Origin: a virus
IMG/VR virus record: IMGVR_UViG_3300009605_002428
Coordinates: 1 to 28,460 of that record
DNA length: 28,460 bases
Strand: one strand, 5' to 3'
Shown: positions 5,021 through 22,592 of the stretch, in pieces
Position numbering within the stretch: position 1 is the first letter of the stretch
How the letters are laid out: each line of letters opens with the position of its first letter
The notes under the pieces: model-generated
What the model saw: only the letters and a program-made list of their open reading frames with translations
The model's database searches: none
What the model was told of the DNA's origin: nothing
Position numbers and translations under genes: made by a program

Positions 5021-5788
5021 ATGGTTAACATCGAACAACTAAGAAAAAAATACGAACAAATTAATAACCCGGGAGGAAGCAGCAACGCCGAGTTTCTCAG
5101 CAAATTCTTTATGATGGAGGAAGGTACTTCTCTTGTACGAGTTCTTCCCTCCAAGGATGAAGATAGTGAATTTTATGCTGAGACTGCCATTCACCGTCTC
5201 AATGATAAGAATTATCATTGCCCCCGCATTAAGGGTGACAAGTGTCCTGTATGTGATACTTATTACGACATGTGGAAGGAAATTAATGCGGTTGGTAAAG
5301 ACACTCCGCAAGGTAAGGAAATGGCTGACATTGCACGTCAGATTAAAGCCTGGAAACGGTACTACATGAACGTAGTAGACCGTAGAGATAACTCTGTTAA
5401 GATTCTGTCAGTAGGACAAAAGCTTTTTGGTAAGGTTCTCGACTGTTTCTTTGATGAGGACTTTGGAGATATCACCGACCTAAAAACTGGTTGGGATTTC
5501 AAGATTGTTAAAGACACTCAAGGACAATGGCCAAACTATGATAAGTCTGCACCAAAACCAAAATCATCTTCCGCAGGAACTGCTAAGGAGAACGCAACTT
5601 ACATGGATGAGCTTCATGACATTCACGGTCTTGTAAAGGTCGCTGAGTATGACGAACTCAAGTCTTTAATGACGGACCTTGTAGCTACTAACACTCCAGC
5701 GGAGGATAATCTAGGAACAGATTATCAAGCACCGAACGCAGATGACCAGGACTATATGTCCCATCTGAAAGACCTTAAGGTGGACTAG
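5021..5788 (+). CDS. Single-stranded DNA-binding protein, gp32 type
   Basis: A 255-residue homologue of T4 gp32, which coats single strands in replication, recombination and repair. The short basic N-terminus (LRKKYEQINNP) corresponds to the cooperativity element. VRVLPSK (39-45) matches the start of the OB-fold core. H58, C67, C75 and C78 (HCP..KGDKCPVCD) match the structural zinc site (His, Cys, Cys-x2-Cys in T4). Aromatic/basic stretch KAWKRYYMNVVDRR (about 109-122) follows. The C-terminus is acidic (EDNLGTDY..ADDQDYMSHLKDL), the partner-binding tail. The protein is shorter than T4 gp32 (301), mostly in the tail linker. It closes the replication block; the sugar-modification genes begin 3 bases later. 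Confidence 0.94.
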   Translation: MVNIEQLRKKYEQINNPGGSSNAEFLSKFFMMEEGTSLVRVLPSKDEDSEFYAETAIHRLNDKNYHCPRIKGDKCPVCDTYYDMWKEINAVGKDTPQGKEMADIARQIKAWKRYYMNVVDRRDNSVKILSVGQKLFGKVLDCFFDEDFGDITDLKTGWDFKIVKDTQGQWPNYDKSAPKPKSSSAGTAKENATYMDELHDIHGLVKVAEYDELKSLMTDLVATNTPAEDNLGTDYQAPNADDQDYMSHLKDLKVD

Positions 5789-5791
5789 TTC

Positions 5792-7060
5792 ATGGCAGAT
5801 AAGCTAAAGGTCTTAGCTTGTCCATCGAATCACGGAGGGTGCGCTTACTATCGCATCCTCCTACCGATGGAAAAACTGCAACAGTTATATCCTGACGAAG
5901 TGGAGATTCGTTGGGATGATAACCCTTTAGGGTGGACTTCCCCCTCAGGAGAAGGGGAGAACATGGTACCCGGACAGCAAACTCCTCCGGATTATGACTA
6001 TGAAAATTTGAAATGGGCTGACGTGGTATTCACGCAGAACATTCATAACTATGGAGGGCTTTATACTCTTCACATACTACAGAAGGCTAATGAGTTTGGA
6101 GCCTTTACACACTTTGATACAGACGACCTTCTTACTGACCTGTACGAAGGACACCGTTTGTACAATGTCTACACGGAACAAAAACTAGATGAGATAACAA
6201 AATACATTTATAATAATGTAGATTTGGTTACAGTAACGCAAAGAAAGTTCGCGGAACGTATAGCCGAGTTTGTGAGAGGAGCGTTAGTGGTAATAAAGAA
6301 CACGATAGATTATAGCTTACCACATTGGAATCTACCCAAAAAGCCTAAGCCCCGTAAGAAGTTTACCAGGATAGGCTGGGTAGGAGGAATTCACCATGAC
6401 GTGGATGTAAAACATTTTGTTGGAATTCCGTGGCTAGTAAATCAAAAAGTAGGAATGGAGAATGTTCACTGGGGTTTCTATGGGAAACCCCCTATGGCTC
6501 CCGAGGAAAGGGATTGGCAGTGGGATGTTTGGGAAGGTTATGAACGTATGTTTAAGGCAGGTTTTAAAGGACATAGAAATTACAACATATTTCCCGCAAT
6601 GCCCCCCAATACCTACGGAGAGATGTACACCAATATCGACATCAACATGGCAGTCTTGGATAACAATGCTTTTAATGATTCTAAGTCTGAGATTAAAGCT
6701 ATTGAGGGGGCACGGTATGGCGTACCGTTGATTGCAACTGACGTCGGATGTTACGATGAACTAATTGTTAACGGGGAGACAGGTTATCTTATTGACCCTG
6801 TCAACTCTAAGAGTGAATGGCTGAGAGTTCTCACTAAGTGTATCAAGGACCCAAAACACGTAGCAGAGATGGGACGTAATTTAAAAACGGTCTGTGACGG
6901 TTTATACGACATTAACAAAGTGGTAGGACAACGTCTCACTTTATATAAAGACCTTATGGGGCTCAAGGCTCAAGCACTGGCTGAAGCTCAGGATTTCCAA
7001 AAGACCAAAGCAGTAGTCGAGTCTCCTCACCAAGTACATTATAACCAACCTATTGATTGA
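5792..7060 (+). CDS. Glycosyltransferase, GT-B fold, family-1/GT4-like
   Basis: A 422-residue protein that would transfer a sugar from a nucleotide donor. The N-terminal lobe begins VLACPSNHGGCAYYRI; the C-terminal lobe opens with TRIGWVGGIHHD (192-201). The donor-binding signature is in SEIKAIEGARYGVPLIATDVG (299-319) followed by ELIVNGETGYLI (323-334), with the E-x7-type motif and the acidic residues usual for GT4. The last 40 residues (after LYKDL) look like a disordered tail. First gene of the sugar island, three bases after gp32, with GGTGGA upstream as a weak SD. Donor and acceptor cannot be read from sequence. Confidence 0.88.
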   Translation: MADKLKVLACPSNHGGCAYYRILLPMEKLQQLYPDEVEIRWDDNPLGWTSPSGEGENMVPGQQTPPDYDYENLKWADVVFTQNIHNYGGLYTLHILQKANEFGAFTHFDTDDLLTDLYEGHRLYNVYTEQKLDEITKYIYNNVDLVTVTQRKFAERIAEFVRGALVVIKNTIDYSLPHWNLPKKPKPRKKFTRIGWVGGIHHDVDVKHFVGIPWLVNQKVGMENVHWGFYGKPPMAPEERDWQWDVWEGYERMFKAGFKGHRNYNIFPAMPPNTYGEMYTNIDINMAVLDNNAFNDSKSEIKAIEGARYGVPLIATDVGCYDELIVNGETGYLIDPVNSKSEWLRVLTKCIKDPKHVAEMGRNLKTVCDGLYDINKVVGQRLTLYKDLMGLKAQALAEAQDFQKTKAVVESPHQVHYNQPID

Positions 7061-7857
7061 TGAAATATCTCAGCGTAGTTGCCGTTATGAAGGATGAACT
7101 TCCTAATTTGGAAGAGTGGTTAGATTTCCACCGGGGGGTAGGAGTAGAGCATTTTTATTTATACGATAATGGAAGTACGGATGGCACTCATGGGTTTATC
7201 AAAGACCAGGAGCCCTCGGACATTTCTTATTTTAATACAGATATGGATATGTGCCAACTCGCATGTTATTATAATGCGCTAACCGCATTTAATGACCAGT
7301 CTCAATGGATGGCATTCATTGACCTAGATGAGTTTCTCTTCTCCCCCAAGGGGGATTTGCGGGAGGAGCTTAAAAAGTTTGAGGGAAGCGCCCCAGGAAT
7401 TGCAGTGAATGAAGTGTTCTTTGGTTCTAACGGACATAAGACGCGACCTGAGGGAGGAGTGTTAAAGAATTATACCAAACGTCGCAAAGATATTGACAAG
7501 CATATTAAAAGTATATGTCAGCCCCGATACACTTTGTGCCCTGCGGGAAATCCCCACTCGTTTTACTATACTCAAGGGATGGCTCTCGACGAGAAGCATC
7601 AGAACTCTCCGGGTCCGTTTAGGTATCCCGGTACGGCAGATACTTTTCGGGTAAATCATTACTGGGTTAAATCTAAAGAGGAGTACGAAAGGAAGCTAAC
7701 CAGAGGCAGAGCTGATGTCCCTTCTCGCGACCCTAAGTTTAGGTATACTACTGGTATAGGAAGGAAGTTGGAGGATGTGTGGAAACAAGACAATGAAATG
7801 GAAGACACTATAATTTTGGACCATGTCAAAAATAAAAATAATCTCCGGCTGGTCTAA
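7060..7857 (+). CDS. Glycosyltransferase, GT-A fold (GT92/GT2-like)
   Basis: I place the start at ATG 7060 (TGATG overlap with the upstream stop); a TTG one codon earlier is also in frame. The 265-residue product shows the GT92/DUF23-like pattern: VVAVMKDELPNLEEWLDFH (7-24), a Gly-rich loop, FYLYDNGSTDGT (32-43) and WMAFIDLDEFL (83-93), with D88-x-D90 as the metal-binding DxD. Later NHYWVKSKEEYERKLTRG is also typical of the family. Cytosolic, with no membrane segment or signal peptide. Overlaps the next gene by 35 bases. Confidence 0.88.
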   Translation: MKYLSVVAVMKDELPNLEEWLDFHRGVGVEHFYLYDNGSTDGTHGFIKDQEPSDISYFNTDMDMCQLACYYNALTAFNDQSQWMAFIDLDEFLFSPKGDLREELKKFEGSAPGIAVNEVFFGSNGHKTRPEGGVLKNYTKRRKDIDKHIKSICQPRYTLCPAGNPHSFYYTQGMALDEKHQNSPGPFRYPGTADTFRVNHYWVKSKEEYERKLTRGRADVPSRDPKFRYTTGIGRKLEDVWKQDNEMEDTIILDHVKNKNNLRLV

Positions 7858-8620
7858 AGAAGGAGGCTCCACATTTTCGTTGATGGAGCTATGTGACCTT
7901 TTTAATGAACGAGGTCATGATTGCACTTTCTATGGTCCTCATCCATGGCACTTGGATAAGTGTCGGGGTGACCTTAGCCATAACTTTTGTTTCGAAGAGG
8001 GAGATGTTACTATAGGACACTTTATCCATATGCCTACCCGACCTCCTCAACCACGACGACTGGTTTTGAGCTGTCACGAAAAAGCTATCTTCCAGTTACA
8101 GAAACTTGAGAGTGAGATTTCCGGGTTCGACGATATAAGGTTTATCAGCGAGAATCAAAAGGAATGGCAGGGCGTAGAGGGTATTGTAATACCTAACACG
8201 ATTCGGGGCGTAGCGGATTCAGGAAACCACCCCCAAGGCGTGGCTGGAGTTATAGGAACCGTATGTCCCCTAAAAAGAACTCATGTATCCATTGAGCGAG
8301 CTTTCGCTGATGGAATAAAAAAGGTTTTAATTTACGGCAATAGTTTGGATAAAAGTTACTTTAATGATATTATAAAACCACTCTTAGGAGAAAAGGTAAT
8401 CTACATGGGAATGGAATTAGACAAACAAAAGATATATGATTCTATTTCATGTGTTTACCAATCCAATTCTAACGAGCTTCCTGAAGCTTTCGGAAGAGTA
8501 CGCGCTGAATGTATCAGAGCGGGTATTCCGTATCACGGCAACGAGAATGCTACTACCGAATTTGAGCTCTGGGAGGAAGACACAATTTATAATACATGGA
8601 AGGAATTTTTAGAACTATGA
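7823..8620 (+). CDS. Short GT-B-like glycosyltransferase
   Basis: A 265-residue protein with a GT4-like N-terminal start, IISGWSKEGGSTFSLMELC (5-23), where the Gly-rich loop follows the first strand, then LFNERGHDCTFYGPH. The middle has a strand IGTVCPLKRTHVSIERAF (about 143-160), equivalent to the donor-lobe opening, and the end has YQSNSNELPEAFGRVRAECIRAGIPYHG (about 213-240), the usual donor-binding position with the Glu. It is about 100 residues shorter than typical GT4 enzymes. Starts inside the upstream gene and ends in an ATGA overlap with the next. Specific substrates unknown. Confidence 0.78.
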   Translation: MSKIKIISGWSKEGGSTFSLMELCDLFNERGHDCTFYGPHPWHLDKCRGDLSHNFCFEEGDVTIGHFIHMPTRPPQPRRLVLSCHEKAIFQLQKLESEISGFDDIRFISENQKEWQGVEGIVIPNTIRGVADSGNHPQGVAGVIGTVCPLKRTHVSIERAFADGIKKVLIYGNSLDKSYFNDIIKPLLGEKVIYMGMELDKQKIYDSISCVYQSNSNELPEAFGRVRAECIRAGIPYHGNENATTEFELWEEDTIYNTWKEFLEL

Positions 8621-9327
8621 CAGTAGGCATTATAGGGTATGGAGAGATAGGACAGGCTTTAGATAAGCTTTATATTCAGTACGAGTATATTCCTCTCATT
8701 AAAGACTTAGACCGGGATGATGGTTTGGGTGGAGTAGACGTTTTGAACATTGCTATTCCTTGGAGTCATTCCTTTATCTCCGATGTCCAGAGCTATATTG
8801 CCGAGATTAAGCCGCGTTTAGTTATTATTCATTCCACTGTCCCACCCGGCACAACCCGGGAGGTTGGAAAGACGTTCGGTAACATCGTTCATTCCCCCGT
8901 CAGAGGAGTGCACCCAAATCTTTTCGAGGGACTACAAACTTTTGATAAGGTTATCGGAGGAGAAGGTTTTGCGGATGCCAAACAACATCTAGAAGACCTA
9001 GGGCTAAACGTAGTAGTTTACGAAACTTCTATGTGCTCAGAAGTGGCTAAGCTCTTAGACACCTCCTACTATGGTGTATGTATCGCATGGCATGATTATG
9101 CGAAGAAGTTGTGTGATTTATGGGGCGTCAATTTTGATGACGCACAGACCCATTACAATGAATCTTACAACGAAGGGTATACTAAATTAGGGAAACCTAA
9201 TGTCGTGAGACCTACTCTCACTCCACCCGAGGGAGCTATCGGGGGACATTGTATTGTGCCTAACGCTGAACTTCTTAGAGAGGTTTTAGATTCGGCTCTC
9301 CTACAATCTATCACTAACCTCAAATGA
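8617..9327 (+). CDS. Shortened UDP-sugar dehydrogenase-like protein
   Basis: Start chosen at ATG 8617: it overlaps the upstream stop as ATGA and puts the NAD-binding GIIGYGEIG (4-12) right at the N-terminus; an upstream in-frame ATG at 8596 is less likely. Family landmarks of UDP-glucose/UDP-ManNAc dehydrogenases: HSTVPPGTTR (72-81), SPVRGVHPNL (93-102), SEVAKLLDT (141-149) with K145, and GGHCIVPN (209-216) with the catalytic Cys C212, closest to WecC-type GGHC. The product has 236 residues; the family usually has 400 or more, with a C-terminal UDP-binding domain that is absent here. The residue at the usual catalytic Asn (K-x3-N) is Thr149. It may act on a different substrate or need a partner. 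Confidence 0.8.
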   Translation: MTVGIIGYGEIGQALDKLYIQYEYIPLIKDLDRDDGLGGVDVLNIAIPWSHSFISDVQSYIAEIKPRLVIIHSTVPPGTTREVGKTFGNIVHSPVRGVHPNLFEGLQTFDKVIGGEGFADAKQHLEDLGLNVVVYETSMCSEVAKLLDTSYYGVCIAWHDYAKKLCDLWGVNFDDAQTHYNESYNEGYTKLGKPNVVRPTLTPPEGAIGGHCIVPNAELLREVLDSALLQSITNLK

Positions 9328-10031
9328 TTACTGACTCCTTTGCGAAAGATTTTGAATTCATCTACAACAAGGTGAAGAACAGAGACCACTTTTCGTTTAG
9401 CAAGTTTGCTGACGGAGAGTATATGATTTTGCGCAACGAGGAGATTACGAACTGCGACAACTGGACCTTCAATCCTACTGAACACTTCAAAGAACAACAG
9501 CTTCTACTCGACTCCTTTCAATATGAACACGAGGATTATTATGTGGGAATAAGCTGTCCTTGTTGTCAACCACACGACCACATTAAGTGGATGAGAGACC
9601 ACGTAGGAACCCAGAATGTTACATGGGCAAACCTTTTTGTGAATGCTAACTACCCTATGTTCTTGGATAAAATGATACCCGAGTTCGCCACATGGGAGGG
9701 AAGAACTATTCTAGTAGCTAATGAGGCAGGTCAAGACCGTGAGCTTCCCTTCAAGGTGGATGAGTATGTTCCCTGCAACATGAAAGCTTTCTTACATCCT
9801 TATGTGGACAAGCATTTCGAAAAACTATTCACATTAGCTTTAGAGGAGGAAGGACAACTAATCCTCTTCTCTGCAGGACCTTTAGGAAACATGTTAGCCC
9901 ACCAGCTACATCTACTCAATAAGAAAAATACGTATCTAGATATAGGGTCTACGATAAACCCCTGGATTGTAGGACCCAATCGAGGGTACTTAAACAGACC
10001 TCTCTACATGCTGACATCCTGTCAGTGGTAA
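9324..10031 (+). CDS. Putative GT-D-fold (DUF1792-like) glycosyltransferase
   Basis: A 235-residue protein starting in an ATGA overlap. FSKFADGEYMIL (25-36) matches the signature of GT-D enzymes, where D-x-E (here D30-G-E32) binds the metal and donor. Further matches to that family's layout: YYVGISCPCC (about 72-81), TWANLFVNANYP (about 99-110), and near the C-terminus LILFSAGPLGNMLAHQL (about 178-194) then TYLDIGSTINPW. No membrane segment. The known GT-D enzymes add glucose to Ser/Thr-linked glycans of serine-rich proteins, but the acceptor here cannot be inferred. Sits between the dehydrogenase-like gene and the epimerase. Confidence 0.7.
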   Translation: MITDSFAKDFEFIYNKVKNRDHFSFSKFADGEYMILRNEEITNCDNWTFNPTEHFKEQQLLLDSFQYEHEDYYVGISCPCCQPHDHIKWMRDHVGTQNVTWANLFVNANYPMFLDKMIPEFATWEGRTILVANEAGQDRELPFKVDEYVPCNMKAFLHPYVDKHFEKLFTLALEEEGQLILFSAGPLGNMLAHQLHLLNKKNTYLDIGSTINPWIVGPNRGYLNRPLYMLTSCQW

Positions 10032-10032
10032 T

Positions 10033-11028
10033 ATGATTCTTATTTGCTTTGGTACCCGACCTGAATGGTTGAAAGTAAAACCCTTACTTAAGGTTCTGGA
10101 CAACTATCAGTTATTATTTACCGGACAGCATGAAGACTTACTCAAATCGGTTGAGGTTGATTACCGTATCACTATGGGAGACCATAGCAATAGGCTAGAC
10201 GGAATTATAAGTGACTGCATGATTCAATTCCCTGAAGGGGGCTTTGATTCCGTACTCGTACAGGGCGATACTGCCTCAGCTTTTGGGTGCGCTCTTGCCG
10301 CGTTTAATAGGAAATTAAAAATCTATTACTTGGAGTCTGGACTCCGGACTTACCAACTAGACCACCCTTATCCTGAGGAGGGATACCGCCAGATGATTTG
10401 TCGTCTCGCGGACAAGCATTTCTGCCCTACGGAGTTGGCGGCACGAAATGTAGAGGAAGAGAAGTGTGGAGGAACTATAGATGTTGTGGGGAATACGGTA
10501 TTAGATAATCTAGTTCACTACCGGGATAAGTGTAGCTATGGCGACCAAGTCTTGGTAACCCTACACCGCCGAGAGAACCACCACCTAATGCGTGAGTGGT
10601 TTCTCCAACTAGAGGATATTGCTCGCTGGAACCCCAACCTGGAGCTTATTATACCCCTTCACCCTAACCCTAATGTTCAGAAGCATAAAGATGTTTTTAG
10701 GTATGTTAAAGTTGTTGACCCATTAGAGTATCCCGATTTATTAAATTTGTTAGTTAAATCTAAGTTTGTTATAACCGACAGTGGTGGACTGCAAGAGGAA
10801 GGCAGTTTCTTTAACAAGAAGGTTATTGTGTGTAGAGAGTGCACGGAAAGACCTGAAGCTATCGCGACAGGACACCTGCACATGTGCTCTAAACCAGAAC
10901 TCCTTAAAGATATTGTTACTTCTGTGAATAGAAATCCTATAATAACACAACCGTGTCCTTATGGGGACGGAAACTCTGCTACTCGTATAAAAGACTTATT
11001 ATGGCAAAAGAAAAAAATAGAATCGTAG
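10033..11028 (+). CDS. wecB: UDP-N-acetylglucosamine 2-epimerase (non-hydrolysing)
   Basis: A 331-residue GT-B-fold epimerase that would convert UDP-GlcNAc to UDP-ManNAc. Motifs in order: FGTRPEWLKVKPL (6-18), VQGDTASAFG (74-83) with the catalytic Asp, YLESGLRT (about 98-105) with the Glu, PEEGYRQMICRLADKHFCPTE (about 113-133), VTLHRREN (about 173-180) with the His, ITDSGGLQEEG (about 246-256), and RECTERPEAI (about 265-274). It is about 45 residues shorter than E. coli WecB, lost in loops, but all catalytic positions are present. A WecB next to a WecC-like dehydrogenase suggests a ManNAc or ManNAcA donor. The last 28 bases overlap the carbamoyltransferase gene. Confidence 0.93.
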   Translation: MILICFGTRPEWLKVKPLLKVLDNYQLLFTGQHEDLLKSVEVDYRITMGDHSNRLDGIISDCMIQFPEGGFDSVLVQGDTASAFGCALAAFNRKLKIYYLESGLRTYQLDHPYPEEGYRQMICRLADKHFCPTELAARNVEEEKCGGTIDVVGNTVLDNLVHYRDKCSYGDQVLVTLHRRENHHLMREWFLQLEDIARWNPNLELIIPLHPNPNVQKHKDVFRYVKVVDPLEYPDLLNLLVKSKFVITDSGGLQEEGSFFNKKVIVCRECTERPEAIATGHLHMCSKPELLKDIVTSVNRNPIITQPCPYGDGNSATRIKDLLWQKKKIES

Positions 11029-12680
11029 GAATTTCCACGGGTGGACACGATGTATCCTATGCTATCCTTAAAGATGGACGACCCGAAAAACATGCGGAGT
11101 TAGAAAGATACACTCGTATTAAGGAGTGCGCTGGAGATGCCGTAGAATTTTTGTTGGAGAACGAGGACCTGTCCGACGTATCCCATGTATGCAATTTAAT
11201 AAACCCGTATAAGGGAGGTATACAGAAACGTTTCCCTGAGTCCTGGGCAAAGCTTCGAGACACTCTTAATAAGACCGGAGGCGAGTACGTTGAAGTGGGA
11301 CATCATAGGTCTCACGCCGCCAACGCATTCTTTTCCAGTCCTTATCATGAATCTCTTATCATTACAATTGATGGTGGGGGCTATTGTGATGGGACTGGGG
11401 AAGTTAAAGTTACTTGTGTTACCGTCTGGGTAGGGCAAGGAAATAAAATACAACATATTAGTACTTTCCCGGATGCGTTTAACCCCGGTAAGTTCTGGAG
11501 CGATTGCACTAAAAATATTTTTGGACTCTCTATTGGTCCTCCCATAGGAAATCAATGTGGTACTGTCATGGGGATGGCGGCATGTGGAGACCCGGTCAAA
11601 TATGTGCGAGAATTCCTGGAGGACCCACTTTTTATGCATCACCAAGGGTTTGACGAGTTCACTAGACCAAGTGACTTTGTGAAGAAGGGAGGAGCGCGAA
11701 ATGAGCTCCCGGGATTTGATTTTGAGAAGTGGGCAGAGAGAGCTAAGGAGTCCGAAACCGAACAGTTCAATATAGCTGCTGGTCTGCAACGGGCGACTGA
11801 GATTGCCATGCGCCAGTTGATAACCCAGATTATAGAACATACCCACAACGTAACCAACCATAAATTTGATAAACTATGTTTAGCGGGAGGCGTGGCTCTG
11901 AATTCAGTTATGACAGGGAAGCTCTATGAGTGGTTCCCTCACTTCTCACAAATTTATATTCCTCCGGTTCCCTACGATTCCGGGTTAGCTATAGGCTCCC
12001 CCCAATACTTATATCATCACGTTATGGATAATCCTCGCGTGGATTTTGGGGATTGCTTTACTCCATACATGGGAGGGGAATATAACAAGAGGGAGATTAT
12101 GGAGGTAGTTAATAATACCAGCGGCATCGAGTGGAGAGAAGCTAGTGCTGATGAAGTCGTAGATTTACTCACGGAGAAAAAGGTAGTGTCCTTATTTGGA
12201 GGACCTTCGGAGTGTGGAAGACGGGCTTTAGGGAATAGAAGCATCGTAGCTGACCCTAGGTTCGATGATATTAAAGATATTGTCAATGAGCGCGTAAAAC
12301 ATCGGCAGTGGTTTAGACCCTTTGCTCCCTCTATATTGTGGGAAAAATGTGGAGAGTGGTTCGACCGACCCATTCCTAGCCCCTACATGTCTTTCGTCAG
12401 TAGGTTCGCTACCGAACCATTAGAAGATAAAGTCCCCGGGGTGGCGCACTTTGATGGCACTGCCAGGACTCAAACGGTGACGAAGGAAAGTAACCCTTGG
12501 TATCATAGTTTCATTTCTAAATTTGATGAGAAGACTGGGGTACCTATGATTCTCAATACCAGTTTCAATGATAGAGAGCCTATTGTTGAAACCCCACAGG
12601 ATGCTATGAATTGTTTTTATAAAACAGAGATTGATTATCTGTATTATTTCGACTATAATATTTTGGTAAACAAATCATGA
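11001..12680 (+). CDS. Carbamoyltransferase, NodU/TobZ family
   Basis: Start placed at ATG 11001, so that the first strand IVGISTGGHDVSYAILKDG (8-26) comes at the usual distance; an in-frame upstream ATG at 10953 would add 16 unlikely residues. The 559-residue enzyme family moves a carbamoyl group from carbamoyl phosphate, via carbamoyl-adenylate, to a hydroxyl. Kae1-like domain: H16, HHRSHAANAFFSSPY (101-115) with metal-binding His residues, DGGG (124-127), LAGGVALNS (294-302). YrdC-like domain: LFGGPSECGRRALGNRSIVADP (398-419), RQWFRPFAPSIL, and the late LNTSFNDREPIVETPQDA. Acceptor unknown: probably a sugar in this context, though carbamoylation of modified cytosine in phage DNA is known for relatives. 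Confidence 0.93.
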   Translation: MAKEKNRIVGISTGGHDVSYAILKDGRPEKHAELERYTRIKECAGDAVEFLLENEDLSDVSHVCNLINPYKGGIQKRFPESWAKLRDTLNKTGGEYVEVGHHRSHAANAFFSSPYHESLIITIDGGGYCDGTGEVKVTCVTVWVGQGNKIQHISTFPDAFNPGKFWSDCTKNIFGLSIGPPIGNQCGTVMGMAACGDPVKYVREFLEDPLFMHHQGFDEFTRPSDFVKKGGARNELPGFDFEKWAERAKESETEQFNIAAGLQRATEIAMRQLITQIIEHTHNVTNHKFDKLCLAGGVALNSVMTGKLYEWFPHFSQIYIPPVPYDSGLAIGSPQYLYHHVMDNPRVDFGDCFTPYMGGEYNKREIMEVVNNTSGIEWREASADEVVDLLTEKKVVSLFGGPSECGRRALGNRSIVADPRFDDIKDIVNERVKHRQWFRPFAPSILWEKCGEWFDRPIPSPYMSFVSRFATEPLEDKVPGVAHFDGTARTQTVTKESNPWYHSFISKFDEKTGVPMILNTSFNDREPIVETPQDAMNCFYKTEIDYLYYFDYNILVNKS

Positions 12681-13252
12681 TGAAATCTCCCTGGACGACC
12701 GATTACATAAATGACGTACAAGTAATAGGTATGTATAAATCCGGTACTAATTTCGTAGAATGGAGTCTTAATAATAACTTTGAGGACATAGACTACCGGG
12801 ACATAAGCCGGAGGATGAGACGTACTAGGATATGCCCCGTCACTAGAGAGAGTTTACCGGAGCCGAAAATTGGTGAGTGGGGACAGTTAATAGCTATCAA
12901 GCATCTATTTCCCGGTCTAGATATTACTTGGAACAATACAATTGCCATTTACCGGGAGTTTGATGTGTGGGCGAATTCCATGAAAGAGTACACCGAGAAA
13001 GACGACACGGTCTTTAACATACCTCTTCAAGAGGGATGGGACAACTGGTGGAAGGGAATCAACGAACAGTTAGACCCGGAGCGTACGATTGTAGTGGAAC
13101 ACAGTTGGGCTGTAAAGAATTACAGCGATTTTATGAATCTTATTGTGGATAAATTTGGATACACTTTAAAGAAAGATTTCCGAGCCCCATCTTTCCGTTT
13201 AGATAAGGGAGGGGCTGAGGCAGTCGAGACTGAGGAGCCGTTCTCCCTATGA
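12677..13252 (+). CDS. Sulfotransferase-like protein
   Basis: A 191-residue protein; ATG 12677 or 12680 are both possible, overlapping the upstream stop. The first strand and loop VIGMYKSGTNFVEWSL (16-31) resemble the 5'-phosphosulfate-binding loop of PAPS-dependent sulfotransferases (K-S-G-T). IAIYREFDVWANSM (89-102) resembles the 3'-phosphate-binding strand, in which an Arg (R93) and a Ser (S101) are spaced similarly. VVEHSWAVKNYSDFMNLIVDKFG (about 138-160) matches the late helix where the family reads Y.dL...p...i..ifeFLG. Smaller than most sulfotransferases. If active it would sulfate a sugar. A P-loop kinase-like alternative cannot be excluded. Confidence 0.65.
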   Translation: MMKSPWTTDYINDVQVIGMYKSGTNFVEWSLNNNFEDIDYRDISRRMRRTRICPVTRESLPEPKIGEWGQLIAIKHLFPGLDITWNNTIAIYREFDVWANSMKEYTEKDDTVFNIPLQEGWDNWWKGINEQLDPERTIVVEHSWAVKNYSDFMNLIVDKFGYTLKKDFRAPSFRLDKGGAEAVETEEPFSL

Positions 13253-13992
13253 TTACCACTATTCTCAACTGTTACAAACGGACAGACTATTTGAAGGAAC
13301 AGATAGAAGCTGTACGCGCCCAGTCCATACCTGCTGAGGATATATGGATTTGGTACAACAAACCCGAAGACAGGGAACAAATAGAGTTGGAGGCACCGGG
13401 ATGTAAAACCATAGTGTGTAATCACAACTTTAAGTTTCACGGAAGGTTTGCTTTAGGGCTCCTCGCCCAGACCCCCTACGTTGCATTCTTTGATGATGAC
13501 ACCGTACCTTCTCCCCGTTGGTTTGAGAACTGTATGACCTCTATAGATTTAGGTTATGACGGTATCTTGGGGGCGATTGGGGTGGTGCTTCAAGGCGAGG
13601 CGTATGCTCCTAATTATAAAGTGGGTTGGGATTTTCCCAACGATAAAATCGAAGAGGTTGATTTAGTTGGTCATGCATGGTTTATGAACAAAGAGTACTT
13701 AAGATACCTTTGGTACGAAGAGCCTCTCAGTTGGGAGAACGGGGAGGACATGCAGTTGAGTTATCTCGCACAGAAGCACGGAGGAGTGAAGACATACGTC
13801 CCACCCCACCCCGAGGATAACACAGAGATTTGGGGTAACAACCCCAAGACGGCAACTGAGTATGCCAATGATGAGAATGCTAATGGGTTCCATGTGCAGT
13901 CTCACTTTCCTCTACGCCAGCAAGTGGCAGCTACTCAAATTCGTAATGGGTGGCAAACTGTACTGAAACGAAACAATGAACTTCAAGGATAA
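13249..13992 (+). CDS. Glycosyltransferase, GT-A fold (GT2-like)
   Basis: A 247-residue protein beginning ITTILNCYKRTDYLKEQIEAV, the usual GT2 opening strand and helix, then PYVAFFDDDTVPSPRW (76-91) with the metal-binding D82-D83-D84. VGHAWFMNKEYLRYL (140-154) and ENGEDMQLSYLAQKHG (163-178) correspond to the acceptor-side segment and the catalytic E-D motif (G165-E166-D167). No membrane segment. Starts with an ATGA overlap; its last 17 bases overlap the dehydratase gene, so the two are probably co-translated. Donor and acceptor unknown. Confidence 0.87.
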   Translation: MITTILNCYKRTDYLKEQIEAVRAQSIPAEDIWIWYNKPEDREQIELEAPGCKTIVCNHNFKFHGRFALGLLAQTPYVAFFDDDTVPSPRWFENCMTSIDLGYDGILGAIGVVLQGEAYAPNYKVGWDFPNDKIEEVDLVGHAWFMNKEYLRYLWYEEPLSWENGEDMQLSYLAQKHGGVKTYVPPHPEDNTEIWGNNPKTATEYANDENANGFHVQSHFPLRQQVAATQIRNGWQTVLKRNNELQG

Positions 13993-14824
13993 AAATATTT
14001 TAATCACCGGAGGTTCCGGTTTCTTAGGTAAGGCTTTAGTTAAAAGGTTGCTAGGTACGGCTAACCACATTCGGGTCTTGTCTCGGGATGAGGGACAACT
14101 CATTGAACTAAAGCAGGAGTTCCCGGAAGTGGAGATTTACACCGGAGACATTGGCGATGAATTTACAGTACACCAAGCGGCATACGGAATGGATGGTATC
14201 TTTCATTTGGCGGCTTTTAAACATGTAGGGTTGGCTGAGAAGTTTGCCAGTGAATGCACCCGGTCCAATGTGTTGGGAAGCATGAATGTTCTGTCTGCCA
14301 GTATGGTATACGATTTAGAGTTCGTGGTGGGAATCAGTACAGACAAAGCCGCACAGGTAGCAGGGGTATACGGAGCCACCAAACTGCTTATGGAAAGACT
14401 ATTTAAGCAGTACGAAGATGTGAACGATAAATGCCAGTATCGTATTGTACGCTATGGGAATGTATTACACTCTACAGGCTCTGTTTTATGTAAATGGAAA
14501 AAACTTTTAGAGAACGGGAAGGAGTGCTTAATAACCGAACCCACTGCCACGCGTTTCTACTGGAGCGTGGACCAAGCTATAGATTTGATTTTTGAATGCT
14601 GTGATGAAGCCGAGGACTCGTCACCTTACTGTCCTGCAATGAAGGCTATGAAAATTGCTGACCTATTCACAGCCATGAAGAAGAAATATGGCGTTGAAGC
14701 CCCTCTTCCTAAAATTATAGGATTGCAACCCGGGGAAAATTTACATGAAAAGGTTCTCGATGATGGACCTTATTCCAACGAGGTGGAACTATACACCGTT
14801 AAAGAAATTATGGAGATGGTATAA
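13976..14824 (+). CDS. NDP-sugar 4,6-dehydratase, FlaA1/PseB type
   Basis: A 282-residue extended short-chain dehydrogenase that would make a 4-keto-6-deoxy-HexNAc nucleotide sugar. NAD-binding TGGSGFLG (11-18); LSRDEGQL (35-42) is the FlaA1-type segment after the second strand; HLAAFKHVGLAE (77-88) is diagnostic of PseB/CapD. The catalytic set STDKAAQVAGVYGATK has D123, K124, Y132 and K136, with the K+8=Y spacing of FlaA1/PseB, replacing the usual S-Y-K. VRYGNVLHSTGSV and TATRFYWSVDQAIDLIF follow as in the family, then GLQPGENLHEKVL. Cytosolic and soluble, without the membrane segments of CapD. Starts inside the preceding GT gene and ends TAATG with the next. Confidence 0.92.
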   Translation: MNFKDKNILITGGSGFLGKALVKRLLGTANHIRVLSRDEGQLIELKQEFPEVEIYTGDIGDEFTVHQAAYGMDGIFHLAAFKHVGLAEKFASECTRSNVLGSMNVLSASMVYDLEFVVGISTDKAAQVAGVYGATKLLMERLFKQYEDVNDKCQYRIVRYGNVLHSTGSVLCKWKKLLENGKECLITEPTATRFYWSVDQAIDLIFECCDEAEDSSPYCPAMKAMKIADLFTAMKKKYGVEAPLPKIIGLQPGENLHEKVLDDGPYSNEVELYTVKEIMEMV

Positions 14825-15537
14825 TGAAAGACCTAACCTTACTTGTAGGCACTTGTGATAAATACAGTTTTTTATGGGATAACTTTAAAACCCTAGAACA
14901 ACGCTACTTAGGGCTGAAGGACTGTCCTAGGGTTGCGTTCTCCGAGTCCATGGAATTCGGGGACGGCTATACGACTTCCTTTGAGGGGAAGGGAAAGAAT
15001 TCAGAGGTGTGGTCTAACCGACTGCTCAAGGCTCTGAAGGAAGTAGACACAGAGTTTGTTTTCTTCGTATTGGAAGACTACTACTTCACCAGAGAAATTC
15101 CCCAAGAGGATTTTGAACAAATTGTACAGCTGTTAACAGCTACAGACTTTAATAAGTTTATGTATGTGAACCAGTTACGTTCTTATAAAGTAGCCGACAC
15201 TCTGTGGTTTGAGAAGCGCATGAAGCTTTTTGGAACCCCATTCATTCAGCACCCTACAAGTGACTACTTGACCTCGGTTCAACCAGCTGTGTGGAGAACC
15301 TCTTTCCTTAAGGACTGCGTACACCGTGACTGGAGCCCATGGGATTTGGAGATTAAAGGAACCAAAGAGATAGCGGGAGAAAATAATAAAATACTTTTAT
15401 ATCATAGTGATGATATTTATTTTAATGCCGTACGCTCGGTAGGAGAAACTTCGGCAGAAAAACGTATTGCTGTCTCCGAGGGATGGGAAGAAGTGAGAGA
15501 TAAGGAAAATCTAAAAGAAATTGTTTTACCTAAATAA
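14824..15537 (+). CDS. Putative GT-A-like glycosyltransferase
   Basis: A 237-residue protein opening DLTLLVGTCDKYSFLWDNF (3-21), a first strand and helix like GT2 enzymes. Then WSNRLLKALKEVDTEFVFFVLEDYYFTREI (about 62-91), where FVLEDYYF stands at the place of the DxD strand with L-E-D. SDYLTSVQPAVWRTSFLKDCV (about 146-166) and SPWDLEIKGT (about 170-179) resemble the acceptor-side region of small bacterial capsule/LPS transferases. Last gene of the sugar island. No membrane segment. The DxD is not canonical, so activity is inferred from fold-level resemblance and position. Confidence 0.75.
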   Translation: MKDLTLLVGTCDKYSFLWDNFKTLEQRYLGLKDCPRVAFSESMEFGDGYTTSFEGKGKNSEVWSNRLLKALKEVDTEFVFFVLEDYYFTREIPQEDFEQIVQLLTATDFNKFMYVNQLRSYKVADTLWFEKRMKLFGTPFIQHPTSDYLTSVQPAVWRTSFLKDCVHRDWSPWDLEIKGTKEIAGENNKILLYHSDDIYFNAVRSVGETSAEKRIAVSEGWEEVRDKENLKEIVLPK

Positions 15538-15540: not shown

Positions 15541-15744
15541 ATGGCTAAATTTGTAAATAATTCGGATAACGATGTGTTCATCGACCTAGGGAAACTAATT
15601 CTGATTAGACCGGGGGAAGTAATTGATTTACCAAAAGCGAATTCCTGTCCTCCTCTCACCCTTATTCCTCCCACACCCAAGAAGAGGAAACCTAAGGTGA
15701 CCGCCAAAAAATCTCCTACACCGCCTGTAAGTGGAACTATATAA
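15541..15744 (+). CDS. Small protein with Pro/Lys-rich tail, unknown function
   Basis: A 67-residue protein three bases after the preceding stop. Residues 1-40 look like a small beta domain (FVNNSDNDVFIDLGKLILIRPGEVIDL), and the remaining 27 are rich in Pro, Lys and Thr, likely disordered (PPTPKKRKPKVTAKKSPTPP). I do not recognise it. The layout, a compact beta unit with a basic flexible tail, occurs in small phage structural or nucleic-acid-binding proteins, but nothing here proves either. Confidence 0.7.
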   Translation: MAKFVNNSDNDVFIDLGKLILIRPGEVIDLPKANSCPPLTLIPPTPKKRKPKVTAKKSPTPPVSGTI

Positions 15745-15906: not shown

Positions 15907-15929
15907 AACTTTCCCGCCATGTCTATAAT
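15901..15929 (+). promoter_or_regulatory. Putative promoter of recA/uvsX
   Basis: A perfect TATAAT at 15924-15929, with GTCAAA at 15901-15906 (3 of 6 matches to TTGACA) at the ideal 17-base spacing. The -10 box ends five bases before ATG 15935, so the transcript would begin at or very near the start codon. The box lies within CTATAATAAG, which recurs before rmlA, so a phage-specific (late-type) promoter is an alternative reading. Confidence 0.6.
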
Positions 15930-15940
15930 AAGGCATGGCG
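15915..15940. repeat. Inverted repeat around the recA/uvsX start
   Basis: CGCCATG (15915-15921) and CATGGCG (15934-15940) are perfect 7-base inverted repeats enclosing 12 bases that contain TATAAT. The right arm contains the ATG. As DNA it could be an operator over the -10 box; in read-through RNA it would form a hairpin that buries the start codon. Confidence 0.7.
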
Positions 15941-16906
15941 AATATTTTAGACGACATCTGTAAGAGGCTCGATGGAGCCAATCTCCTGTCCGAAGAGGGG
16001 CAGGTTCACGGGTATGTAGATTCCGGTTCCTACGCTCTCAACAAGATTATTTCGGGAGAGTATAATGGAGGATTTCCCATCGGAGGTATTACAGAGATTT
16101 ACGGTGAATCTTCGACAGCAAAAACAGTATTTCTTACTCATGCGTTCGTAGGAGCGCAGAAGCAGGGATACTATACGATTATGGTAGATAACGAACATGC
16201 GTATTCTCCTTCATTTGCTGAGACTTTAGGTGTTGATAGTGAAAGATTAATTTACACGATGCCGGAAACTATGGAAGATTGTTTTGAGACAATCGAAAAA
16301 GCTATACGAGCAATTCGTGAAACCGATAAAGATACCCCCATTGTTATTGGGTATGATTCTATCGGTGTGTCCCCCACAAGAAAAGAAATGGAGGGGGACC
16401 TAGGTAATAATAGTGAAATATCGGGTGCTTTGAGAGCAAAAGTTGCTGGACAATGCTTACGACGCATTAATCCCTTACTAAGAAAACACAAAGCCTGTCT
16501 TATCATTATTAACCAAGTTCGTAGTAAAGTTGGTTTGGTGTTTGGTGACCCACGCACAAAAGCTGGAGGAGGCAAAGCTCTCCTTTATTATTGTGCCGTG
16601 TCCCTCGAAGCTGCATCTGGAAAAAGTGATATACTATACGATGATGTTAAAAACCCGACTGGAATTAAGGGCACTATGAGATGTGTAAAAAACAAAGTAA
16701 CTGTCCCCTATCAAGATTGTGATTTTAAACTTCTGTATAATGAAGGATTGCAGCGAGACTACGGACTAACCAATTCAGCCTATAAAAGTGGAGTAGTGAC
16801 TTCCCCCTCTAAAGGTTGGTACTCTTTGGATGGCAAGAGCAAAGCTCGTGCCGCCGATTTAACTTCAACCCTCTGTGGTATGATAGAAGAAGGAACCTTA
16901 ATATGA
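15935..16906 (+). CDS. uvsX: RecA/UvsX-type recombinase
   Basis: A 323-residue strand-exchange ATPase. Order of features: an N-terminal helix, GSYALNKIISGEYNGGFPIG (31-50), Walker A GESSTAKT (57-64), VDNEHAYSPSFAETLGVD (84-101) with the catalytic Glu E87, Walker B IVIGYDSIG (136-144), and NQVRSKVGLVFGDPRTKAGGG (193-213) as the second DNA-binding loop, matching RecA's NQIR..G..FG.PET..GG. The Walker A Gly before Lys is Ala (G-x4-A-K-T), a departure of the sort phage UvsX proteins tolerate. The C-terminal domain of bacterial RecA is largely missing, as in phage forms. Acts with gp32 and the possible UvsY. Ends ATGA with the rmlC-like gene. Confidence 0.94.
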   Translation: MANILDDICKRLDGANLLSEEGQVHGYVDSGSYALNKIISGEYNGGFPIGGITEIYGESSTAKTVFLTHAFVGAQKQGYYTIMVDNEHAYSPSFAETLGVDSERLIYTMPETMEDCFETIEKAIRAIRETDKDTPIVIGYDSIGVSPTRKEMEGDLGNNSEISGALRAKVAGQCLRRINPLLRKHKACLIIINQVRSKVGLVFGDPRTKAGGGKALLYYCAVSLEAASGKSDILYDDVKNPTGIKGTMRCVKNKVTVPYQDCDFKLLYNEGLQRDYGLTNSAYKSGVVTSPSKGWYSLDGKSKARAADLTSTLCGMIEEGTLI

Positions 16907-17340
16907 GCCGTTTAATTAAACTCGATAAATTTGTGGATTCTCGTGGGTGGAGTCTTAACGATATCTATTCTATGTTCAATCCTAAGCTAGTAGATGCTAA
17001 TGACTACCAAATAAATTATTCTATATTATATCCTGGTATTGTTAAGGCGTGGCACAGACACAAATATCAAGATGATTATTTCTGCATCCTTAAAGGCATG
17101 GCTCAAGTAGGCTTATATAGCAAGGAGAAGGGTATTGAAAAACATTTTATTGGGGAACATAACCCTGCAATAGTTCATGTGAAGGCAGGAGAATGGCATG
17201 GGCTAACTGCTGTTGGCAATGAACCGTGCGGTTTATTATACCTTGTTACAAAGAAGTATAACTCCGATGAGCCTGACGAGGAACGTGCGTCATGGAATTC
17301 ATTTGGGGATGACAGCTTCTGGTATCCGGAGTGGAAGTAA
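16903..17340 (+). CDS. rmlC: RmlC-like dTDP-sugar 3,5-epimerase (cupin)
   Basis: Start at ATG 16903, overlapping the uvsX stop as ATGA; the frame is open further upstream, but that would run inside uvsX. The 145-residue cupin has DSRGWSLNDIYS (12-23), KAWHRHKYQDDYFCILKG (48-65) with H51 and H53, IVHVKAGEWHGL (90-101) with H99, and LLYLVTKKYNSDEPDEERASW (111-131) with the C-terminal Tyr region, all in RmlC order. RmlC epimerises dTDP-4-keto-6-deoxyglucose on the way to dTDP-L-rhamnose. It is shorter than E. coli RmlC (185). The other three Rml enzymes are encoded 3-6 kb downstream. Related cupin ketoisomerases (FdtA type) are the alternative. Confidence 0.78.
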   Translation: MSRLIKLDKFVDSRGWSLNDIYSMFNPKLVDANDYQINYSILYPGIVKAWHRHKYQDDYFCILKGMAQVGLYSKEKGIEKHFIGEHNPAIVHVKAGEWHGLTAVGNEPCGLLYLVTKKYNSDEPDEERASWNSFGDDSFWYPEWK

Positions 17341-20243: not shown

Positions 20244-20972
20244 ATGAAAGGTATTGTATTAGCTGGGGGTCTAGGTACTCGTTTGCACCCTCTCACACAT
20301 GCGACTAACAAACACTTGTTACCTGTATATGACCGACCGATGGTATACTATCCGTTACAAACACTTGTAACTGCGGGTATTAAAGATGTTATGGTGGTAA
20401 CTGGTGGTCCTCATGCTGGGGACTTCATTCGTGTATTGAAAAATGGAGAAGACTTAGGTCTGGAGAAATTAAGTTATGGATATCAAGAAGGAGAAGGAGG
20501 AATCGCTGATGCTCTCGCTATGGCTGAACCTTTCGTCGGTGGTGATAGCTGTGTCGTCATTCTTGGCGATAATATTATTGCTGATGACATTTCTAATGTG
20601 GTTGAGCATCATGAGTCTATGGGAGGCTGTCAAATCCTTACCAAACAAGTTCCGGACCCGGAAAGGTTTGGTGTAGTTGAGTACGAACCTGTAGGGAGAG
20701 GAATAAAGGATATTATTGAGAAACCTGAGAATCCTCCGTCTGATGATGCAGTTATAGGTTTGTATATGTATGATAATACAGTATTCGACCGTATCAGGAG
20801 CCTAAAACCATCGGCTCGTGGTGAGTTGGAGGTTACAGATTTGAATAGGTCTTACCTCAGAGACGACCAACTAGAGGCACACAAACTTCACGGCACGTGG
20901 ATTGATTGTGGTACATTTGATTCTCTAGCTCACGCAACCCAAAAATTCTATGAAGACAAGAATCAAGAATAA
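20244..20972 (+). CDS. rmlA: Glucose-1-phosphate thymidylyltransferase
   Basis: A 242-residue nucleotidyltransferase making dTDP-glucose from glucose-1-phosphate and dTTP. The N-terminus has the signature GIVLAGGLGTRLHPLT (3-18), then NKHLLPVYDRPMVYYPLQTL (22-41) with the conserved Lys, YGYQEGEGGIADAL (78-91) and VILGDNI (105-111) with the metal-binding Asp D109. DPERFGVVEY, the conserved Glu in IIEKPENP, and the late GTWIDCGTFDSL are all as in RmlA. About 50 residues shorter than E. coli RfbA; it lacks the C-terminal extension, as in the short RmlA class. First gene of rmlABD. Confidence 0.96.
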   Translation: MKGIVLAGGLGTRLHPLTHATNKHLLPVYDRPMVYYPLQTLVTAGIKDVMVVTGGPHAGDFIRVLKNGEDLGLEKLSYGYQEGEGGIADALAMAEPFVGGDSCVVILGDNIIADDISNVVEHHESMGGCQILTKQVPDPERFGVVEYEPVGRGIKDIIEKPENPPSDDAVIGLYMYDNTVFDRIRSLKPSARGELEVTDLNRSYLRDDQLEAHKLHGTWIDCGTFDSLAHATQKFYEDKNQE

Positions 20973-21909: not shown

Positions 21910-22592
21910 GATTAGAAGGAAAAAGAATTTTAGTAACAGGTGCGCATGGACGACTAGGGAAAGAGTTAGTTCCCCTCCTGCGTAAAGAAGGAGCTAGAGT
22001 TATGGCTCCCAGCCGCAAGGAATGGGATGTAAGTGCTTTTCCCTGTGGCTTGGCAATGCCCGAAGACCCAGATGTTATTATACACGCGGCGGCTTACACA
22101 AATGTTGCGGGGTCAGAGGTAGAAAAAGATGAGTGCCGACTAACAAACGTTGACGGAACTCTCTCAGTTGCTAAATTGGCCAAACAGACAAAAGCTAAAT
22201 TAGTTTATATATCTTCAGATTATGTTGATGTACATCCTATGGGCTTCTACGCCTTTACCAAGAAGGCGGGAGAATCATTTGTAGATAAGAATAAGGGGTT
22301 AATTATAAGAACCTCATTTAAACCAAGGGGTTTGTGGGGGGAGAATAAATTAGAGGGAGTGTTTCATCCTGTTTATACCAATGCGGATTGGGTGGATGTT
22401 ATTGCCTCTAAGGTTGTGGATGTAGTTTGCTCAGACTTGACAGGTATGGTGAATGTGGGAACCTCACCTAAAACCTTAAAAGACTTAGCAATCCAAGAGT
22501 ATCCAGAGGTGGAGGAAATACCTGTAGAAGAAGCAGATGAGTTATTAGGGTATATTTATCCACGAGATACTACTATGGAACTAACTATATAA
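21906..22592 (+). CDS. rmlD: dTDP-4-dehydrorhamnose reductase
   Basis: A 228-residue SDR for the last step to dTDP-L-rhamnose. NAD(P) loop TGAHGRLG (11-18), DVIIHAAAYTNVAGSEVEKD (56-75) as in RmlD, NVDGTLSVAKLAK (81-93), YISSDYVDV (101-109) and catalytic Y115-x3-K119. The stretch between the SDYV strand and YxxxK is about 6 residues, where RmlD usually has about 25 (VFDG..., PY.E.D.P.P), and the C-terminal substrate domain is also short: 228 against about 290 residues. ATGA overlap with rmlB. Confidence 0.85.
   Translation: MRLEGKRILVTGAHGRLGKELVPLLRKEGARVMAPSRKEWDVSAFPCGLAMPEDPDVIIHAAAYTNVAGSEVEKDECRLTNVDGTLSVAKLAKQTKAKLVYISSDYVDVHPMGFYAFTKKAGESFVDKNKGLIIRTSFKPRGLWGENKLEGVFHPVYTNADWVDVIASKVVDVVCSDLTGMVNVGTSPKTLKDLAIQEYPEVEEIPVEEADELLGYIYPRDTTMELTI

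What the first reader, a model, noticed from the sequence alone, without database searches (positions are those of the whole stretch)
5792..15537. Sugar-modification island inserted between gp32 and recA, without export or polymerisation genes
Seen: eleven reading frames encode six putative glycosyltransferases of at least three folds (GT-B, GT-A, GT-D-like), a WecB epimerase, a shortened UDP-sugar dehydrogenase, a FlaA1/PseB dehydratase, a carbamoyltransferase and a sulfotransferase-like protein, all co-oriented and overlapping. Known: host polysaccharide loci also need a priming transferase, flippase and polymerase; none is visible. Inference: the island decorates an existing acceptor (a virion protein, phage DNA or host LPS) with a complex, carbamoylated and perhaps sulfated oligosaccharide.
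Basis: partly seen in the sequence, partly recalled or inferred. Interest (0 to 1): 0.72.

Follow-up and report, generated by a model that had tools for sequence, protein, structure and literature searches.

The report
Swappable sugar-chain locus in marine phages
A family of marine T4-like viruses keeps, at one fixed spot among its DNA-replication genes, a constantly exchanged set of sugar-building enzymes that probably paints a strain-specific sugar chain onto the virus particle or its host, which matters because nobody knows what such phage sugar genes are for.

Summary
The eleven co-oriented genes are real; most functional calls hold, but the sixth glycosyltransferase (14824) has no support and the sulfotransferase rests on motifs. 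The block is not a one-off insertion: it is one allele of a permanent hypervariable locus. All 29 distinct relatives with both flanks carry a block between gp32 and recA (2.7-14.3 kb). All share the first gene, a GT4-type glycosyltransferase; only one other gene occurs in half of them (115 gene clusters, 77 seen once), while flanking genes are constant. Shared genes are under purifying selection (dN/dS about 0.05-0.2), and two near-identical phages differ by a clean swap. A second sugar module, cupin + rmlA-rmlB-rmlD, lies right of recA and recurs in most relatives. No flippase-, polymerase- or priming-transferase-like membrane protein appears among 2,063 ORFs of relatives, and no thymidylate-synthase/dCMP-hydroxymethylase fold in any record of the lineage. 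Most likely the locus builds, in the cytoplasm and directly on an acceptor, an oligosaccharide with a constant inner and a swappable outer part. A virion protein is the likeliest acceptor (inferred); host surface is the main rival; DNA is less likely. New variant of known marine-phage glycosyltransferase islands.

The parts
5021..5788 (+). gp32 ssDNA-binding protein; fixed left flank
   Evidence: PF08804 1.6e-14; flank in all 33 complete intervals
5792..7060 (+). GT4-type (GT-B) glycosyltransferase, the only invariant island gene; proposed first-sugar enzyme
   Evidence: PF00534; phrog_7162 2.8e-29; 29/29 distinct islands; dN/dS 0.05-0.08
7060..7857 (+). GT-A glycosyltransferase (GT2_4/GT92 type); TTG 7057 or ATG 7060 start
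   Evidence: PF13704 2.8e-16, PF01697 2.3e-12; 12/29 islands
7823..8620 (+). compact GT-B glycosyltransferase
   Evidence: AF2 pLDDT 92; Foldseek PimA 1.4e-8 and other GT-B enzymes; 16/29 islands
8596..9327 (+). short UDP-sugar dehydrogenase-like enzyme without C-terminal domain; possible start ATG 8617
   Evidence: PF03721/PF00984 weak; profile to 4r16 3.7e-8; catalytic-type Cys in invariant GGHC; 9/29 islands
9324..10031 (+). GT-D (DUF1792-like) glycosyltransferase
   Evidence: profile to 4phr/4pfx 0.0027 and 5v4a 0.085, invariant DGE motif
10033..11028 (+). WecB-type non-hydrolysing UDP-GlcNAc 2-epimerase
   Evidence: PF02350 3.3e-62; TIGR00236 208 bits vs cut-off 210; PDB 6vlb 3e-46
11001..12680 (+). 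O-carbamoyltransferase of the TobZ/NodU family (ORF opens at GTG 10953; likely start ATG 11001)
   Evidence: PF16861 7.5e-60, PF02543; near full-length alignment to TobZ 1e-50; relatives 59-60% in L194, L198
12677..13252 (+). sulfotransferase-like protein (motif level)
   Evidence: no Pfam/PDB hit; homologue in L205 28%, 3e-23, same slot between WecB and GT2, shared SGTNF-type motif
13249..13992 (+). GT2 (GT-A) glycosyltransferase
   Evidence: PF00535 3.1e-9; partner of WecB and GT-D in other phages
13976..14824 (+). FlaA1/PseB-like UDP-GlcNAc 4,6-dehydratase
   Evidence: PF02719 1.9e-61; FlaA1 2gn4 1.7e-46 with STDKA..YGATK kept; below NCBIfam PseB and FnlA cut-offs
14824..15537 (+). unassigned island protein, possibly a glycosyltransferase
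   Evidence: no family or structure match
15541..15744 (+). small conserved 3'-boundary ORF ending in SGTI
   Evidence: similar 72-73 aa ORFs shortly before recA in seven relatives
15935..16906 (+). recA/uvsX; fixed right flank
   Evidence: PF00154 1.1e-45
16903..17340 (+). cupin sugar isomerase/epimerase-like (CapF C-terminal/WbuC-like)
   Evidence: PF14667 1.1e-6, PF07883; TIGR04366 5.9e-5, below its cut-off
20244..20972 (+). RmlA-like glucose-1-phosphate nucleotidyltransferase
   Evidence: PF00483 7.7e-53; TIGR01207 1.9e-70; 16/18 relatives with enough sequence right of recA
20950..21909 (+). RmlB-like dTDP-glucose 4,6-dehydratase
   Evidence: TIGR01181 1.5e-94; 15/18 relatives
21906..22592 (+). 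RmlD-like reductase (short)
   Evidence: PF04321 9.4e-27; TIGR01214 1.8e-25; 14/18 relatives

Best explanation
It is one allele of a hypervariable 'glycotype' locus of an uncultured marine T4-like phage lineage. SHOWN: a fixed site (gp32-recA) is always occupied; the first gene (GT4) is invariant, the rest are swapped as cassettes while the flanks stay the same; shared genes are under purifying selection; the lineage shows no recognisable flippase, polymerase or membrane priming transferase. INFERRED: the cupin-rmlA-rmlB-rmlD module makes a dTDP-6-deoxyhexose; GT4 (and the semi-conserved GT-A and GT-B enzymes) attach the constant inner sugars directly to an acceptor in the cytoplasm; the swappable genes (here GT-D + WecB + GT2, the PseB-like dehydratase, carbamoyltransferase and sulfotransferase-like protein) make and cap the outer part with ManNAc-type and 6-deoxy-amino sugars, carbamoyl and perhaps sulfate. 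The most likely acceptor is a virion protein, so the locus would give each phage strain its own surface sugar type.
For: 33 complete gp32-recA intervals, 29 distinct, 2.7-14.3 kb, GT4 in 29/29, 77 of 115 gene clusters seen once, while flank genes are constant (gp41 23/23, 4572 25/25, ClpX 17/17). Swap: L140 and L141 have gp32 100%, recA 99% and GT4 dS 0.03, yet the third ORF is not meaningfully alignable (dN 0.89) and the remaining ORFs belong to different clusters. Gene-wise recombination: L033/L035 dS 0.15-0.18 for two genes against 0.94-1.47 for their neighbours. dN/dS mostly 0.05-0.2. No protein with 5+ spans in 2,063 ORFs (control). Other alleles carry NeuB, cytidylyltransferase, GT29 (sialyltransferase family), FdtA, DegT, FkbM and other methyltransferases, an O-antigen-like repertoire. 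rmlA in 16/18 relatives. No PF00303 protein in any record of the lineage tested, although the same search finds it in 6 of 15 other phage records. Precedent: chlorovirus capsid glycans have a conserved inner core and a variable outer region and are made in the cytoplasm by virus-encoded enzymes (PMC7019647).
Against: No acceptor is identified by sequence. Location among replication genes could mean early expression, which fits DNA or host-surface targets at least as well as virions; late-promoter scans were uninformative. LPS core can also be built by soluble enzymes on the cytoplasmic face without Wzx/Wzy (established knowledge). Two of the most divergent relatives lack rmlA on the contig held. 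One member (14824) is unassigned. The smallest islands hold only two to five ORFs, so a long glycan is not universal.
Confidence: 0.5

Rival explanations
1. The locus remodels the host cell surface during infection: soluble glycosyltransferases extend or cap host LPS core or another envelope glycolipid on the cytoplasmic face, and host machinery exports it, excluding competing phages.
For: This is the reading published for cyanophage P-SSM2 LPS clusters (PMC2984593) and for pelagimyophage glycosyltransferase islands (PMC7029224). The repertoire is O-antigen-like. Host surface diversity would explain the allelic diversity.
Against: Neither the window nor relatives encode membrane steps, so it depends wholly on host export. 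A strictly conserved own GT4 plus an own rml module is less expected if the acceptor varies with the host. Whether a lytic infection leaves time to remodel the surface is unknown.
Confidence: 0.3
2. The enzymes hypermodify phage DNA with glycosylated, carbamoylated pyrimidines to evade nucleases.
For: A 5-hydroxymethylcytosine carbamoyltransferase of this enzyme family exists in phages (PMC8670742). The GT-B enzyme 7823 matches T4 alpha-glucosyltransferase among many other GT-B folds. The block sits among replication genes.
Against: No thymidylate-synthase/hydroxymethylase fold in 35 virus records of the lineage nor in the whole single-cell assembly holding a 130.6-kb member. No Tet/JBP match (but the control did not ring). 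In PMC8670742 DNA-active carbamoyltransferases co-occur with thymidylate synthase, and those on unmodified contigs neighbour group-1 glycosyltransferases, as here. NeuB, FkbM and FdtA genes in other alleles fit surface glycans better.
Confidence: 0.12
3. Stuffer or passenger DNA with no selected function (raised for cyanophage LPS genes in PMC3037559).
For: High turnover of genes; most gene clusters are unique to one contig.
Against: dN/dS mostly 0.05-0.2 for shared island genes, intact frames, 577 of 587 ORFs co-oriented, one invariant gene.
Confidence: 0.03
4. A cargo of metabolic genes that alter host nucleotide-sugar pools rather than build a defined glycan.
For: Epimerase, dehydratase and dehydrogenase genes; the related single-cell phage carries PanB and a TPP enzyme in its island.
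Against: Several glycosyltransferases per allele, with a glycosyltransferase as the only invariant gene.
Confidence: 0.05

Closest known systems
Pelagimyophage host recognition cluster (PMC7029224)
   Same: Hypervariable island in T4-like marine phages holding several glycosyltransferases and sugar genes between conserved core modules
   Different: That island lies in the structural region between VrlC and gp14 and contains tail fibres; this one lies between gp32 and recA, shows no recognised tail-fibre gene, and begins with one invariant glycosyltransferase
LPS gene clusters of cyanophages P-SSM2, S-SM2, S-SSM7 (PMC3037559, PMC2984593)
   Same: Large clusters of sugar genes in marine T4-like phages; carbamoyltransferases also occur in cyanophages
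   Different: Found near hli03 or phoH in some larger genomes only; here a fixed locus occupied in every relative with both flanks, with cassette swapping shown between close relatives
Chlorovirus capsid glycosylation (PMC7019647)
   Same: Cytosolic virus-encoded sugar chain with conserved core and virus-specific outer part is the logic proposed here
   Different: Virus of a eukaryotic alga; acceptor (major capsid protein) proven; here a single swappable locus in a bacteriophage and the acceptor is unknown
O-antigen/capsule loci of bacteria (Wzx/Wzy type)
   Same: Conserved flanks, hypervariable middle, rml genes, sugar-modifying enzymes
   Different: No flippase, polymerase or membrane priming transferase; sits in a phage replication region
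5hmC carbamoyltransferase systems of phages (PMC8670742)
   Same: Carbamoyltransferase of the same Pfam families
   Different: No thymidylate-synthase partner; neighbours are glycosyltransferases, as on the unmodified contigs of that study

Membership tests
Wzx/Wzy-type O-antigen or capsule locus | NDP-sugar synthesis genes plus several glycosyltransferases | tested here: met
Wzx/Wzy-type O-antigen or capsule locus | Flippase, polymerase and membrane priming transferase | tested here: not met
   No ORF with 5+ predicted spans in window or relatives; E. coli Wzx, Wzy, WcaJ give 5-9. ABC export or missing genome parts not excluded
Pelagimyophage host recognition cluster | Hypervariable island with glycosyltransferases in a T4-like phage | tested here: met
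Pelagimyophage host recognition cluster | Located between VrlC and gp14 with tail fibres | tested here: not met
   Flanks are gp32 and recA; no tail-fibre family among those shown for the island ORFs (lists cut at 25 families)
Phage DNA hypermodification (hydroxymethylpyrimidine based) | dCMP/dUMP hydroxymethylase (thymidylate synthase fold) | tested here: not met
   PF00303 absent in 35 virus records plus a whole single-cell assembly; found in 6/15 other phage records. Most records are fragments
Phage DNA hypermodification (hydroxymethylpyrimidine based) | Tet/JBP oxygenase as alternative entry | tested here: inconclusive
   PF12851 0/24, but the control set did not ring either
O-carbamoyltransferase (TobZ/NodU) | N- and C-terminal carbamoyltransferase domains over full length | tested here: met
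   acceptor specificity unknown; far below the NodU equivalog cut-off
WecB | Full-length epimerase fold | tested here: met
   208 bits, just under the curated 210
PseB/FnlA 4,6-dehydratase | Curated equivalog score | tested here: not met
   191 of 408 bits (PseB), 147 of 730 (FnlA); only the fold and STDKA..YGATK motif are met, so the product is undetermined
UDP-sugar 6-dehydrogenase | NAD-binding and central domains with catalytic Cys | tested here: met
   single-sequence Pfam scores below cut-off
UDP-sugar 6-dehydrogenase | C-terminal UDP-binding domain | tested here: not met
   243 aa; absent in all members aligned
GT-D (DUF1792) | DGE metal-site-type motif and profile match | tested here: met
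   Weak but specific: 4phr E=0.0027, 5v4a 0.085
Sulfotransferase | PAPS-binding fold | tested here: inconclusive
   Motif only; no hit, low-confidence model
Chlorovirus-like virion glycosylation | Glycosylated capsid protein | not testable with these tools
   needs purified virions

The most novel reading that the evidence does not exclude
A bacteriophage lineage has a 'serotype' system for its own particles: a constant inner sugar and a swappable outer oligosaccharide, built in the cytoplasm on a virion protein by a single hypervariable locus, the bacterial-virus counterpart of chlorovirus capsid glycosylation and of bacterial O-antigen loci.
Probability: 0.35. Interest if true: 0.82.

Novelty: new variant of a known kind. 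Interest (0 to 1): 0.56.

Why it matters
'LPS genes' in marine T4-like phages have long been described without knowing whether they act on virion, host surface or DNA, or are stuffer DNA (PMC3037559 says so openly). Here the locus is fixed, occupied in every relative examined, led by one invariant enzyme, under purifying selection and visibly swapped between near-identical phages. That argues against stuffer DNA and turns the question into a test: find the acceptor of the GT4 enzyme. If the acceptor is the virion, phages would have surface types under diversifying selection.

Tried and rejected
Close relatives of the PseB-like protein, CarbT and SulfT as single-protein queries in viral contigs: none found; relatives of CarbT and SulfT came only through WecB. 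Structure prediction of the sulfotransferase-like protein without relatives: pLDDT 38, discarded. PDB and phage searches for 14824: nothing useful. GT4 in cultured phages: only short weak Streptomyces-phage matches. Exact junction words in the right half to confirm the assembly: no second contig, so that part rests on one assembly, on uniform base composition and on conserved synteny. Promoter and terminator scans: no more sites than shuffled DNA. T4 late-promoter word: no signal. Repeats: nothing like integration sites. Considered and rejected: a bacterial O-antigen fragment (phage genes on both sides), a degraded dehydrogenase (conserved family), a one-time insertion (no empty site seen). 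Single-linkage clustering merges short-chain dehydrogenases into one cluster, so counts for 'PseB/SDR' are for SDR enzymes in general; the 14824 cluster is also loosely linked.
Full report
WHAT THE WINDOW IS. The window is a whole 28,460-base virus record, probably a genome fragment, of a T4-like phage: GroES, ribonucleotide reductase, gp41 helicase, gp32, RecA/UvsX, a ClpX-like AAA protein and a MoxR/VWA pair. Its RecA is at best about 35% identical to RecA/UvsX of cultured phages, so the lineage is essentially uncultured. In pelagiphage HTVC008M the neighbours of UvsX are DNA polymerase and primase-helicase, with no sugar block.

THE OBSERVATION. Eleven + strand ORFs fill 5792-15537, nearly all overlapping or abutting. 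Pfam supports six of them above its cut-offs and one weakly. Two more are supported by structure or profile: 7823 is a compact GT-B enzyme (AF2 pLDDT 92; Foldseek to PimA, BshA, WaaG and T4 AGT), and 9324 matches the GT-D enzymes 4phr/5v4a with an invariant DGE motif. The short UDP-sugar dehydrogenase-like protein at 8596 belongs to a conserved short family with the nucleotide-binding glycines and the catalytic-type Cys retained. The sulfotransferase-like protein has no database hit, but one homologue (28%, 3e-23) lies in the same WecB-X-GT2 slot in another phage, L205, and shares an SGTNF-type motif. ORF 14824 remains unassigned.

COMPARATIVE ANALYSIS. Scans of 2.9 million virus contigs with RecA and gp32 gave 35 and 80 loci. 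Thirty-three contigs, the window included, hold the full gp32-recA interval, 29 after removing four duplicates. The interval is never empty: 2.7 to 14.3 kb. GT4 is in 29/29. Only 7823 also reaches half (16/29). 115 gene clusters occur, 77 of them in one contig. By contrast gp41 (23/23), 4572 (25/25), 17651 (20/20), 18043 (20/20) and ClpX (17/17) are constant. Right of recA, rmlA is present in 16/18, rmlB in 15/18, rmlD in 14/18 and the cupin in 10/18 contigs with enough sequence. Island content diverges fast: contig pairs with gp32 90-99% identical share on average half of their island clusters (mean Jaccard 0.49).

SWAPPING AND SELECTION. L140 and L141 have identical gp32, 99% identical recA and GT4 dS 0.03, but the third island ORF is hardly alignable (dN 0.89) and the remaining ones belong to different clusters. 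L033 and L035 show dS 0.15-0.18 in two genes next to genes with dS 0.94-1.47, i.e. exchange gene by gene. Shared genes have dN/dS mostly 0.05-0.2. This is a working, actively reshuffled locus, not stuffer DNA.

REPERTOIRE. Other alleles carry GT2, GT11, GT29-family and GT4 enzymes, NeuB, cytidylyltransferase, FdtA, DegT aminotransferase, FkbM and many other methyltransferases, WbqC, formyl- and acetyltransferases. The GT-D/WecB/GT2 trio is wider than this lineage: among 58 loci encoding WecB relatives, 48 have the GT-D enzyme and 46 the GT2 enzyme nearby, mostly in other, often larger phages. In this window CarbT and the sulfotransferase-like gene sit between WecB and GT2; in G005 the trio is uninterrupted. 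CarbT relatives (59-60%) occur further along the same island in L194 and L198.

EXPORT AND DNA TESTS. No ORF of the window or its relatives (2,063 examined) has five or more hydrophobic spans; E. coli Wzx, Wzy and WcaJ give 5-9. PF00303 (thymidylate synthase/hydroxymethylase fold) is absent from all 35 virus records of this lineage tested and from the whole single-cell assembly G036, while the same search finds it in 6 of 15 other phage records. Tet/JBP was not found, but the control did not ring. In the published 5hmC-carbamoyltransferase work, DNA-active enzymes travel with thymidylate synthase, whereas those on unmodified contigs neighbour group-1 glycosyltransferases (PMC8670742); this island matches the latter.

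HOST AND CHROMOSOMAL ORIGIN. The invariant GT4's only strong match in one-genome-per-species bacterial and archaeal data is contig QCKN01000003.1 (130,604 bp) of the Prochlorococcus single-cell assembly AG-409-P03. That contig is itself a T4-like phage with head, portal, terminase and baseplate genes, the same RNR-gp41-gp32-GT4...recA-ClpX order and its own roughly 17-kb island. This hints at a cyanobacterial host for that relative (a particle sorted along with the cell is possible) and says little about the window's own host.

MECHANISM. Shown: fixed locus, invariant first glycosyltransferase, swapped remainder, purifying selection, no export genes found. Inferred: GT4 places the first sugar of a constant inner region, fed by the cupin-rmlABD module; the variable enzymes build and cap the outer region, here from WecB and PseB-like products with carbamoyl and possibly sulfate groups; assembly is sequential in the cytoplasm. 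The acceptor is inferred. A virion protein fits best with cytoplasmic assembly, an own conserved core and diversifying outer sugars, the logic of chlorovirus capsids (PMC7019647). Host-surface remodelling is the published view for related islands (PMC7029224, PMC2984593) and remains open.

VERDICT. It is a new variant of a known kind, marine phage glycosyltransferase islands. The acceptor question is open but now directly testable.

Noticed in passing
   Followed up: yes
L192-L249 (58 loci): A widespread phage cassette GT2-WecB-GT-D: 46 and 48 of 58 loci with a WecB relative carry the GT2 and GT-D partners nearby, mostly in other and often very large phages.
   Followed up: partly
L171, L185-L191: A 130.6-kb phage contig binned in the Prochlorococcus single-cell assembly AG-409-P03 belongs to this lineage; its gp32-recA island carries ketopantoate hydroxymethyltransferase, a TPP enzyme, radical SAM proteins, DegT and RmlC.
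   Followed up: partly
L029/L030 contig G020 60099-62933 and L027 contig G019 55060-58062: Ribonucleotide reductase genes of two relatives are interrupted by an in-frame insert of about 1 kb; in G020 it begins with Cys and ends with Asn before Cys, as inteins do.
   Followed up: partly
window 15541-15744: Small conserved ORF at the right edge of the island (about 67-73 aa, ending SGTI), without any family.
   Followed up: partly
window 15915-15940: A 10-pair hairpin spanning the recA start codon (ATG 15935), possibly a translational control element.
   Followed up: no
window 24961-28388: MoxR-type AAA ATPase, an unknown 414-aa protein and a VWA-domain protein, conserved together in relatives.
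   Followed up: no
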